Source: Mrakia gelida (lineage: Eukaryota; Basidiomycota; Tremellomycetes; Cystofilobasidiales; Mrakiaceae). Taken from it: a stretch of 64,000 nt of DNA. The stretch covers positions 496,001-560,000 of the forward strand of contig BRON01000017.1 of assembly GCA_024345305.1 (NCBI GenBank), given 5' to 3'. The notes under the pieces are model-generated. The model did not search any database and was not told the DNA's origin. It worked only from the letters and a program-made list of their open reading frames with translations. Each line of letters opens with the position of its first letter. The stretch's first letter is position 1. Of the stretch, positions 30,334-33,300 are shown piece by piece. The position numbers were made by a program, and so were the translations under genes.

Positions 30334-33300
30334 ATGTCCTCTCCACCTTCTGTACCACCTCCCGGCGCCCCCAAGAGCAAAGATCACGTCCGAGCTGCTC
30401 TTTCAGCCATCAAGAACAAGGCTCCCATCGTGAGCTCGTCTTCCTTTCTCGTCCTTCTCTTCTTTCGCTTCTTCTACCCTTCCTTCGAGCGCAGCACACT
30501 GACTCATACATATATACACACACTGCTGCGCTTCATCCTTCCGCAGCCCACGATCGATTTCACTCAACATCTGATGGAGGACGGGACGATCGTTTCTACT
30601 CAGGAGAGGGTCGTCAAAGATGTACGTCCGAGAGCGAGAGCTCGTCTTTCTTTCTTCTCTCTTCTTGGGTTCGATGGATGTATGGAAGGAAGGGGGGGAG
30701 GGGGAGCTGCTGCGGATGATATAGGAGAAGGGAGGGGCCGTCTGGAGGAAGAGGGAAGCTGGAGGAGGGAGGAGGGCGAAGGGAGGGAGTTGAGAGGAAC
30801 GAGAGGAAGGAGGGAGCTCGTGAGAGAGCGAGAGGGAGAGCACGACCTCTTCTCTCTTGGGAGGCAATCGAGGTGTATATGTATACCGAGAGCTTAAGCC
30901 AGGCTCGTGAGGTAGGGGAGATGAAAATCTTCCCCTCTCCTCGCTGGCTCTCTCTCCTCCTGGCCCTCTCCGACCGAGCGAGCTCAGCTCAACCTACCTC
31001 GACTCTCGCATCAACAAGGGCACCCTCCCTCCCTTCGATTCAGCCCACCTCCTCCTTCTCTTCTCTCCCCACTGACTGACCCCTCACTCCCACCTCCCCT
31101 CTCCCCTCCAGGTCCAAGCTCCAGCGATGCACGTCCCCACAGACGAGCAGTTCTACCTCACCTCAGACCCCACCAAACCCGACATCGCCTTCCTCAAGAA
31201 TCACTTTTATAGAGAAGGAAGGTTGACTGAGGAGCAGGCTTTGTTCATCTTGACCAGGTGGGCCTTCAGTCGTCTATCTTTCTATACTTTTGGGTGGGGA
31301 CGGCGAGGGCAGGAAGGAGCTCGAGCGAGAGCTGACCTTTGTTCGTCTTCGTTTGGGCTCTCAGGGCAAGCGAGATCCTAGCGAACGAGCCGAATCTGTT
31401 GGAGGTGGATGCGCCTATTACTGGTGAGTAGTTGACTCTTCCTCTCTCGAGATCTATGTCCTTGGAACGAGAGAGCTGACACGTTTGGCGTTGACAGTTT
31501 GTGGAGATATCCATGGACAATACGTTCGTTCTCTCCTCCTCCCTGCCTCTTCTTCTTTCCTTCTTCCTCGAGCGCGAAAACTGACTGGAACATCACTTGA
31601 ACCATTACAGTTTGACCTTATGAAACTGTTCGAAGTAGGAGGGAACCCTGCTGAGACGAGATACCTCTGTTCGTTTCGCCTCCTCCTTCGCTTCGTTCGT
31701 TCGTTCGTTCGTCGAGCTGACCCGACCTGGTTCGGTTTCGTGCAGTCCTTGGAGATTACGTGGATCGAGGATACTTCTCTGTCGAGGTAAGTGACATGGG
31801 ACTGGTTCTGGAAGGGGAGAGGCAAGGGAGGGAGGGAAGGACGCGCTGTGGGGAAGGAGCGAGGAGGGAACAGGGAGGAGCTCGAAGCTGACCTCGGTTC
31901 GTTTGGGTGTTACTCTCGCAGTGCGTTCTCTACCTCTGGGCTCTCAAGATTCACTACCCGGATACCCTCTTCCTGCTTCGAGGAAACCACGAGTGCCGTC
32001 ATCTCACGGACTACTTCACTTTCAAGCTCGAGAGTGAGTCCGCGTCGTCTCGAGCTCACCTCCTCCCTTCCTTCGTCGCGTCCTTCCTTCGCTCCTGCTC
32101 CTCTCGAACGCTCGCTGACTTTCCTGCTCTCGTCTCCGTCCCTCTTTGACTCGTCGCAGGCAAGCACAAGTACTCCGAGAACTTCTACAATCACTGCATG
32201 GACTCGTTCTGCAACCTTCCTCTCGCCGCCGTGATGAACAAGCAGTTCCTCTGTATCCACGGAGGCCTGTCGCCGGACCTTCACACGCTGGACGATCTTC
32301 GAGCTGTAAGTCCTTCCTTCCACCCAAATTCCTCGCGAGCTCGACGAACTCATGCTGACCTTCTTCGCCTCCTCCCGTCCTTCGTCTTCGCCAGATCGAT
32401 CGATTCCGTGAGCCTCCTACGCACGGAATCATGTGCGATCTCCTCTGGTCCGACCCTCTGGAAGACTTCGGGAACGAGACGACGAACGAGAGCTTCATTC
32501 ACAACCACGTTCGAGGATGCTCATACTTCTTCACGTGAGTCGTTCGCGTCTTCACCTCTTCTTGTTCGTCCTCGTCGTCTCCCTCGCTCAACCTCCCCTC
32601 TCCTTGCCTGTCGTTTTTTTTCGATACAGCTACAAAGCCGCTTGCGATTTCCTCGAGAGGAACAACCTCCTGTCCATCATTCGAGCTCACGAGGCTCAGG
32701 ATTCGGGCGTGAGTCGATGGTTCACTCCTTTCTCTTTCTCTATCCCCTCCAAGGGCTGACCCTCGCCCCGTATGCGTCTTTTCACAGTACCGGATGTACC
32801 GGAAAACAAAGACGACGTGAGTAGAAGTCTTCTTCTTCAAAGTTCGACGCGAGCGAGGCTCGTTCGCTGACTCGAGTTTCTTTCTCGTTTGTTTCGATCA
32901 GCGGGTTCCCGAGTGTCATGACTCTCTTCTCTGCTCCTGACTACGTGAGTTCGATTTCGCTGCTCGTGTCGAAAGGATCAGAAAGAGATCGAACTGACGC
33001 GTCTCCCTCTCTTTGGTTCGTCGTTCGCAGCGTTCGTTCGCTTCGCCTCGTCTCGTTCACCTGTTCTCATTCTAGACCGAGGTCACTGACTTCTCTTTCC
33101 GCTTCTTCTTGGGTTTCCTCAGTCGACGTGTACAAGAACAAGGCGTACGTCCCACCCCGTCCTCTTACCTCGAAGTCTCGAAAGCTCGACTGACCTTTGT
33201 CTCCCCTTCTCCTTCTCCTCGAAACAGTGCCGTCCTCAAGTACGAAGCCAACGTCATGAACATCCGACAGTTCAACGCCTCTCCTCACCCTTACTGGCTC

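What the first reader, a model, noticed from the sequence alone, without database searches (positions are those of the whole stretch)
32945..33122. One-nucleotide exon in the calcineurin A gene
Seen: 178 nt separate the codons for SAPDY and DVYKNK. Removing them as one GT-AG intron breaks the frame. Two intron-like units, each with donor, CTGAC box and CAG, lie back to back and leave one C (33031). That C completes a Leu codon and restores APDYLDVY, which calcineurin A proteins conserve from yeast to human as APNYLDVY. The second donor, GTTCGT, is used elsewhere in the same gene (31524, 31679). Known: single-nucleotide exons have been reported very rarely in plants. Inference: the calcineurin mRNA is built through a 1-nt exon or an equivalent recursive splicing step.
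Basis: partly seen in the sequence, partly recalled or inferred. Interest (0 to 1): 0.88.

Follow-up and report, generated by a model that had tools for sequence, protein, structure and literature searches.

The report
One-letter exon in calcineurin gene
In a cold-loving yeast, the gene for the signalling enzyme calcineurin appears to contain an exon only one DNA letter long, its sister gene shows the same arrangement, and similar one-letter exons seem to occur in several other genes of this organism.

Summary
Confirmed and extended. The window carries a 20-exon calcineurin A gene (CNA1, 30334-34520, 657 aa) of a Mrakia yeast (Cystofilobasidiales; probably M. gelida). Of 31 single-intron and 161 two-intron GT-AG parses that stay open, only 32945-33030 + C33031 + 33032-33122 gives SAPDYLDVYKNK at the right length. 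New evidence: (1) a diverged paralogue, CNA2, 166 kb away, has the same layout, TAC|GTGAGT...CTGAC...CAG|C|GTGAGT...CTGAC...CAG|TCGAC, giving SAPNYLDVYGNK. (2) Of the 168 top-listed calcineurins, 164 keep YLD at this place; the four that do not are the Mrakia frigida and Phaffia rhodozyma models of both paralogues (V, V, frameshift, VI), as expected if annotators missed a conserved 1-nt exon. (3) A home-made gene finder prefers the 1-nt exon in both genes, and a genome-wide tandem-intron search yields about eight further 1-nt exons with homology across the junction (NDUFS7, alkaline phosphatase, CFA synthase, others). Single-nucleotide exons are known (plant APC11 and VPS55, Fusarium CYP621A), so this is a new member of a known kind; its presence in both paralogues and apparent recurrence in one genome are the surprise. 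No transcript could be examined.

The parts
30334..34520 (+). calcineurin A catalytic subunit gene CNA1, 20 exons (including the 1-nt exon), 657 aa plus stop
   Evidence: gene model assembled by eye, open from ATG to TAA; gap-free to Cryptococcus CNA1 6tz8 over 285 residues of the core; Pfam Metallophos
32902..32944 (+). exon ending ...SAPDY (GAC TAC), phase 0 at its end
32945..33030 (+). intron upstream of the 1-nt exon, 86 nt, GTGAGT...CGCAG
   Evidence: chosen by the gene finder
32994..32998 (+). branch-point box CTGAC of the upstream intron (A 34 nt before the 3' end)
33031..33031 (+). single-nucleotide exon C; first base of the Leu codon (CTC) of YLDVY
   Evidence: only frame- and motif-preserving parse; same in paralogue CNA2 at C17:695344; preferred by 13.4-18.1 nats
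33032..33122 (+). intron downstream of the 1-nt exon, 91 nt, GTTCGT...CTCAG
   Evidence: GTTCGT donor also at 31524 and 31669 of this gene and in 9 of 25 introns of CNA2
33086..33090 (+). branch-point box CTGAC of the downstream intron (A 34 nt before the 3' end)
33123..33144 (+). exon starting TC GAC GTG TAC (..DVYKNK), phase 1 at its start

Best explanation
C33031 is a constitutive single-nucleotide exon of the calcineurin A gene. Two ordinary short introns sit at neighbouring positions, one at phase 0 after the Tyr codon and one at phase 1 after the first base of the Leu codon, so only one exonic base remains between them. They are most likely removed one after the other, since recognition of the second 5' splice site and of the first 3' splice site would occupy the same few bases (inference). 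Because short fungal introns are recognised as introns rather than across exons (recalled), exon length need not matter. The product is SAPDYLDVY, the conserved loop of calcineurin. Shown: sequence, unique parse, same layout in the paralogue. Inferred: splicing itself, its order, and presence of the exon in M. frigida and Phaffia (from their altered gene models).
For: Only parse with frame, length and motif among 31 single-intron and 161 two-intron parses that stay open. Same 1-nt exon C with its own donors, CTGAC boxes and acceptors in paralogue CNA2 (85 and 73 nt introns), whose model is open for 613 aa. Of the 168 calcineurin proteins in two capped top-120 lists, 163 read APNYLDVY and 1 APNYLDMY; the 4 others are M. 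frigida CNA1 (APDYVDVY), M. frigida CNA2 (APNYVDVY), Phaffia CNA1 (out of frame before LDVY) and Phaffia CNA2 (APNYVIDVY). VI is what the donor 4 nt downstream gives, V what a one-base-shifted boundary gives. A gene finder trained on 40 other CNA1/CNA2 introns recovers the exon; delta 18.1 and 13.4 nats for CNA1, 24.2 and 25.2 for CNA2. Among 284 introns called in the window on both strands this was the only 1-nt exon. Other candidate 1-nt exons of the genome restore conserved motifs: NDUFS7 VM[I]VAGTLTNKM, alkaline phosphatase [V]TDSAA, CFA synthase [I]FPGG.
Against: No RNA evidence was available. No DNA of M. frigida or Phaffia could be read, so the changes in their proteins are indirect; both M. 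frigida models have V, which a non-canonical boundary (TG-AG or GT-CA) could also give. With a badly self-trained, over-predicting gene finder the preference fell to 1.2 (CNA1) and 5.1 (CNA2) nats. Size-0 and size-2 tandem patterns also exceed their controls (56 vs 1 and 24 vs 4), so the pattern count alone does not single out 1-nt exons.
Confidence: 0.93

Rival explanations
1. One 174-nt intron (32949-33122) that uses the GT four bases into GTGAGT as donor (GTTCGA); the protein is SAPDY-VI-DVYKNK with one extra residue.
For: Canonical GT-AG and in frame; the public Phaffia CNA2 model reads APNYVIDVY. A +4 donor option was in frame at all 9 further candidate sites listed, so automatic pipelines can find it.
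Against: Ignores a consensus donor 4 nt upstream; inserts a residue into a motif of constant length in 164 of the 168 proteins; leaves the internal CTGAC-CAG-C-GTNNGT unexplained in both paralogues; intron about twice the usual length.
Confidence: 0.03
2. One 177-nt intron with a non-canonical end (TG-AG, 32946-33122, or GT-CA, 32945-33121); the protein reads SAPDYVDVY.
For: Both M. frigida models have V here (P0001, P0121).
Against: Needs a non-GT-AG boundary in two paralogues at once; Leu in 164 of the 168 proteins; tandem splice signals unexplained. V is also what an evidence-driven pipeline could write if it cannot place a 1-nt exon (inference; I do not know how M. frigida was annotated).
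Confidence: 0.02
3. Assembly error: a base is missing from the flanking exons and there is really one ordinary intron.
For: A single missing base would also break the frame.
Against: The same frame break and tandem signals occur in CNA2 and at other loci; the likely assembly came from PacBio and Illumina reads (PMC12749792, section 6); public models from two other species are altered at the same codon.
Confidence: 0.01
4. A stwintron: an internal intron interrupts a splice signal of an external intron and the whole 178 nt leaves in two steps.
For: Two complete intron units in one interval; stwintrons are known in ascomycetes.
Against: Net loss of a contiguous GT-AG stretch gave no parse with frame, length and motif; one exonic base remains between the units.
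Confidence: 0.01

Closest known systems
Single-nucleotide exon of APC11 in Arabidopsis and other land plants (PMC4674806, part 1 of 3 read; PMC8831610, passages)
   Same: One base between canonical AG and GT, needed for frame, missed by annotation
   Different: Plant gene, validated by cDNA and mutated reporters; here a fungal calcineurin gene, no transcript seen
1-nt microexon of VPS55 in plants (PMC8831610, passages)
   Same: One-base exon, conserved across a clade, missing from reference annotations
   Different: In flowering plants one clade of the paralogues has it and the other does not; here both calcineurin paralogues have it
1-nt exon of CYP621A in Fusarium (PMC12940212, parts 1 and 2 of 3 read)
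   Same: Fungal; one base completes a codon in a conserved motif; public models are wrong at the joint (one transcript excepted); interval more than twice the usual intron length
   Different: Ascomycete P450, base G (AG-G-GT), with RNA reads; here basidiomycete phosphatase, base C, two paralogues, further candidates in the same genome, no RNA
Stwintrons (PMC5639578, passages; PMC9024468, search listing and abstract start only)
   Same: Two intron units in one interval, two consecutive splicing steps
   Different: In a stwintron no exonic base remains between the units
Microexons of Phanerochaete chrysosporium P450 genes (PMC1184071, passages)
   Same: Basidiomycete genes rich in tiny exons
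   Different: Shortest exon reported there is 6 bp
Placozoan mitochondrial cox1 single-base-pair exon (PMC5436844, search listing and abstract start only)
   Same: Exon of one base pair
   Different: Mitochondrial gene, not spliceosomal introns (recalled)

Membership tests
Spliceosomal single-nucleotide exon | One base flanked by canonical AG (3' splice site) and GT (5' splice site) | tested here: met
   CAG-C-GTTCGT in CNA1, CAG-C-GTGAGT in CNA2
Spliceosomal single-nucleotide exon | Both flanking introns have their own branch box and plausible length | tested here: met
   CTGAC with A at -34 in both; 86 and 91 nt; CNA2 85 and 73 nt, branch A at -36 and -25
Spliceosomal single-nucleotide exon | The base is needed for frame and for a conserved residue | tested here: met
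   Only parse giving YLDVY; Leu in 164 of 168 proteins
Spliceosomal single-nucleotide exon | Conserved in relatives | tested here: met
   Paralogue CNA2 by DNA. Orthologues in M. frigida and Phaffia only by inference from protein models
Spliceosomal single-nucleotide exon | Present in mature mRNA | not testable with these tools
   no RNA reads or cDNA available
Stwintron | Internal intron interrupts donor, branch box or acceptor of an external intron; nothing exonic between | tested here: not met
   C33031 remains; no contiguous GT-AG removal gave frame, length and motif
Zero-length recursive splice site | AG and GT directly adjacent | tested here: not met
   One base between AG and GT in both paralogues

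The most novel reading that the evidence does not exclude
Single-nucleotide exons are a recurrent feature of Cystofilobasidiales genomes: in this Mrakia genome about ten genes, including both calcineurin A paralogues, the complex I subunit NDUFS7, an alkaline phosphatase, a cyclopropane-fatty-acid synthase and a Siw14-like phosphatase, are assembled through 1-nt exons, and the calcineurin one is older than the Mrakia-Phaffia split and the CNA1-CNA2 duplication. This makes the lineage a natural system for how a spliceosome handles immediately neighbouring introns.
Probability: 0.75. Interest if true: 0.85.

Novelty: new member of a known kind. Interest (0 to 1): 0.74.

Why it matters
If true, it adds a basidiomycete and a signalling enzyme to a very short list of single-nucleotide exons, shows that such an exon can be kept in two diverged paralogues, and suggests that one 35-Mb genome holds about ten. 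That many natural cases in a culturable yeast would make it possible to test how the spliceosome removes two introns one base apart, which intron goes first, and how such exons arise. It would also explain why the public models of these proteins in M. frigida and Phaffia carry V, VI or a frameshift in an otherwise constant loop, and warns that annotation of this lineage may fail at such places.

Tried and rejected
Rejected: single introns with shifted donors or acceptors, the 19-nt exon, stwintron and zero-length recursive readings (see rivals).

Did not work or spoke against: (a) The first self-training of the gene finder over-predicted (746 introns, twelve 0-nt exons) and lowered the preference to 1.2 and 5.1 nats; I then raised the intron cost and thresholds and kept for training only introns with a CTRAC box. 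The second model ('B') was trained on introns called in the window, CNA1's own among them. (b) Size-0 and size-2 tandem patterns gave 56 and 24 hits, controls 1 and 4. Of the 30 size-0 loci that could be read, 21 have an earlier YAG (a longer exon is possible), 5 are copies of one repeat and 4 remain; of the 30 size-1 loci, 11 have an earlier YAG. Size-2 loci could not be read. The count is therefore not specific to size 1; the case rests on frame and homology. (c) Of the 33 distinct size-1 sites (30, 3; model B), 16 did not use the 1-nt exon, 6 used it with delta 2.6-6.1 (L017, L020, L023, L028, L031, L072) and 11 with at least 9 (both calcineurins included). With model A, L019 had 7.5, L028 did not use it and L033 did (1.8). 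(d) Cross-species test on EF2: the C2 copy is a diverged EF2-like paralogue, the best EF2 match lies on C11; the M. frigida and Phaffia EF2 proteins listed are 78% and 77% identical to it and show no damage at this place, so the test says nothing. The EF2-like model also lacks six residues downstream. (e) No Pfam domain crosses the junction in L022 and L029, and a 62-residue piece of L025 gave no Pfam hit though the longer model did. (f) One further 1-nt exon was called among 461 introns of loci L041-L070 (L055), after a bare ATG; it looks spurious. (g) A PDB search with the mitochondrial carrier gave no alignment over the junction; Pfam does. A PDB search with alkaline phosphatase at 1e-40 found nothing; at 1e-20 it did.

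Literature: 'single-nucleotide exon' 14 papers, all listed; 'stwintron' 10; microexon/fungi/1-nt/basidiomycete 14; Mrakia frigida/genome/intron 5; Phaffia/calcineurin 8; one-nucleotide and 1-nt exon variants 5; Mrakia/Phaffia/Tremellomycetes/microexons, 15 of 426 listed; microexon/Cryptococcus, 8 of 33 listed. No title or abstract start that was listed names a 1-nt exon in a basidiomycete nuclear gene; passages of PMC1184071 (shortest exon 6 bp) and PMC3990503 do not either. Subscription journals are not covered.

Full report
What is there. The window holds a calcineurin A catalytic-subunit gene. I assembled it by eye from ATG 30334 to TAA 34520 as 20 exons and 19 introns; it is open throughout and gives 657 residues. 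The catalytic core aligns without gaps to Cryptococcus CNA1 (6tz8), the highest-scoring PDB chain after one that matches twice. The closest public protein is Mrakia frigida at 96% identity, then Phaffia rhodozyma at 73%, so the organism is a Mrakia-like yeast of the Cystofilobasidiales. The genome held here has 34,857,517 bases in 25 contigs; an M. gelida assembly of 25 contigs and 34.9 Mb from PacBio and Illumina reads is described in PMC12749792 (section 6). That it is the same assembly is my inference.

The observation. Between GAC TAC (32944) and TCGACG (33123) lie 178 nt. They contain two complete intron units, GTGAGT...CTGAC...CAG (86 nt) and GTTCGT...CTGAC...CAG (91 nt), separated by one C at 33031. 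The other introns of the gene are 74-135 nt apart from one of 490 nt. I enumerated GT-AG parses over the region (donors 32905-33149, acceptors 32950-33159, introns of at least 45 nt): 31 single-intron and 161 two-intron parses stay open. Three two-intron parses keep the protein length, and only one of them, the 1-nt exon, keeps SAPDYLDVYKNK; no single-intron parse does.

The paralogue. A protein search of the genome found a second calcineurin A gene on the same contig, 166 kb away (C17:692393-696785). Its model, also made by eye, has 26 exons and 613 residues; its exons 3 and 4 are the least certain. At the same codon it reads AACTAC|GTGAGT...CTGAC...CAATCAG|C|GTGAGT...CTGAC...CTTCAG|TCGACGTC, that is SAPNYLDVYGNK, with introns of 85 and 73 nt that differ in sequence from those of CNA1. 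So the 1-nt exon, with the same base and phases, is present in two diverged genes. This speaks strongly against a sequencing error or a chance meeting of signals.

The public gene models. The two protein searches scored thousands of calcineurin-like proteins and listed the best 120 each, 168 different ones together. Of these 168, 163 read APNYLDVY and one APNYLDMY. The four others are the M. frigida and Phaffia entries: M. frigida CNA1 APDYVDVY, M. frigida CNA2 APNYVDVY, Phaffia CNA2 APNYVIDVY, and Phaffia CNA1, which is out of frame before LDVYKNK. In that stretch the DNA implied by GTRL-LDV is consistent with a TAC end and a base missing before the Leu codon (my reading of the codons). VI is what the +4 donor gives in the present gene, V what a one-base boundary shift gives. 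I read the four as scars left where annotation could not place a 1-nt exon; the authors of the Fusarium CYP621A paper report wrong models at their 1-nt exon too (PMC12940212). The DNA of these species could not be read here, and I do not know how they were annotated.

A quantitative test. I wrote a small gene finder (Viterbi over coding frame, splice-site, branch-box and length scores), trained on 40 introns and the coding sequences of CNA1 and CNA2, leaving out the introns that flank the 1-nt exons. It recovers the CNA1 model with the 1-nt exon, apart from an extra exon inside intron 2 and an earlier start. Forbidding the exon costs 18.1 or 13.4 nats in CNA1 and 24.2 or 25.2 in CNA2, depending on the training set. 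A first, over-predicting self-trained version gave only 1.2 and 5.1. On the window, both strands, 284 introns are called and this is the only 1-nt exon. In 30 other loci, 461 introns, one more 1-nt exon is called and looks spurious. In 400 shuffles of the interval's interior a 1-nt exon joined the flanking exons once, never with C.

Beyond the window. The tandem pattern with one base between the units occurs 34 times in the genome (33 distinct sites) against 1 for the reversed control. Excesses also exist for no base (56 vs 1) and two bases (24 vs 4). Of 30 size-0 loci read, 26 have an earlier acceptor or are repeat copies; of 30 size-1 loci, 11 have an earlier acceptor. I rely on frame and homology instead. 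All 33 size-1 sites were examined (30, 3). With model B the 1-nt exon is used with delta of at least 9 in 11, including CNA1 and CNA2; with 2.6-6.1 in 6; not in 16. Homology across the junction: NDUFS7, base C, VM[I]VAGTLTNKM, gap-free to solved complex I, though delta is only 3.1; alkaline phosphatase, G, [V]TDSAA; CFA synthase, A, [I]FPGG; a Siw14-like phosphatase, A; a diverged EF2-like copy, G, DC[T]LHAD, gap-free to yeast eEF2 at the junction; a mitochondrial carrier, C, Y[P]IDAVK; an MFS transporter, A (Pfam only); and an aldehyde dehydrogenase C-terminus 81 kb from a contig start, T, IND[F]GV (Pfam only). An ABC protein and a short piece that looks MFS-like to me have no domain over the junction. 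With the two calcineurins this makes about ten supported cases. None has transcript evidence.

How it most likely works. Each flanking unit has its own donor, branch box and acceptor and ordinary length, so two normal rounds of splicing would leave the C. The acceptor of the first and the donor of the second intron lie so close that removal is probably sequential (inference). PRP-40 in worms and PRPF40A in mouse cells are needed for microexon splicing (PMC8378409, PMC11463390; abstract starts only); whether this matters here is open. The order is unknown.

What is known. 1-nt exons are documented in plant APC11 (PMC4674806), plant VPS55 (PMC8831610) and Fusarium CYP621A (PMC12940212, which calls itself the first for a fungal gene). 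The present one is therefore a member of a known kind. New here are the basidiomycete and calcineurin setting, the presence in both paralogues, the altered models in two genera, and the apparent recurrence in one genome. My searches (two of them listed only a part) show no earlier basidiomycete nuclear case; they cover open-licence papers only.

Noticed in passing
L010 (G000:C17:695107-695109): Paralogue CNA2 also has a 3-nt exon GGT (Gly of DQGYRMY) between introns of 87 and 80 nt; CNA1 has no such exon there.
   Followed up: partly
centre of loci L013, L015, L016, L019, L022, L025, L029, L030; L072 position 745: Further candidate 1-nt exons: EF2-like copy, mitochondrial carrier, CFA synthase, alkaline phosphatase, ABC protein, an MFS transporter and an MFS-like piece, Siw14-like phosphatase, NDUFS7.
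   Followed up: yes
centre of loci L017, L020, L031, L032 (12-82 kb from the starts of C4, C5 and C10): Four similar tandem-intron sites with base T; L032 has an aldehyde dehydrogenase C-terminus (Pfam), L017 and L031 share its tail by eye. Some may be gene remnants.
   Followed up: partly
window 32936-32944: CNA1 has Asp (SAPDY) where the 164 APNYLD proteins and CNA2 have Asn; M. frigida CNA1 has Asp too, and the frame-shifted Phaffia CNA1 model implies it.
   Followed up: no
G000:C5:1699102/1703663, C7:996955/1001516, C19:511367/515928 and others: Fourteen of the 56 size-0 pattern hits are copies of one repeat; three pairs lie exactly 4561 bases apart, as the two ends of a transposable element would.
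   Followed up: no
window 57854-57857 and 56980-56983, - strand: The gene finder calls two 4-nt exons on the minus strand; not checked against homologues.
   Followed up: no
   Followed up: partly
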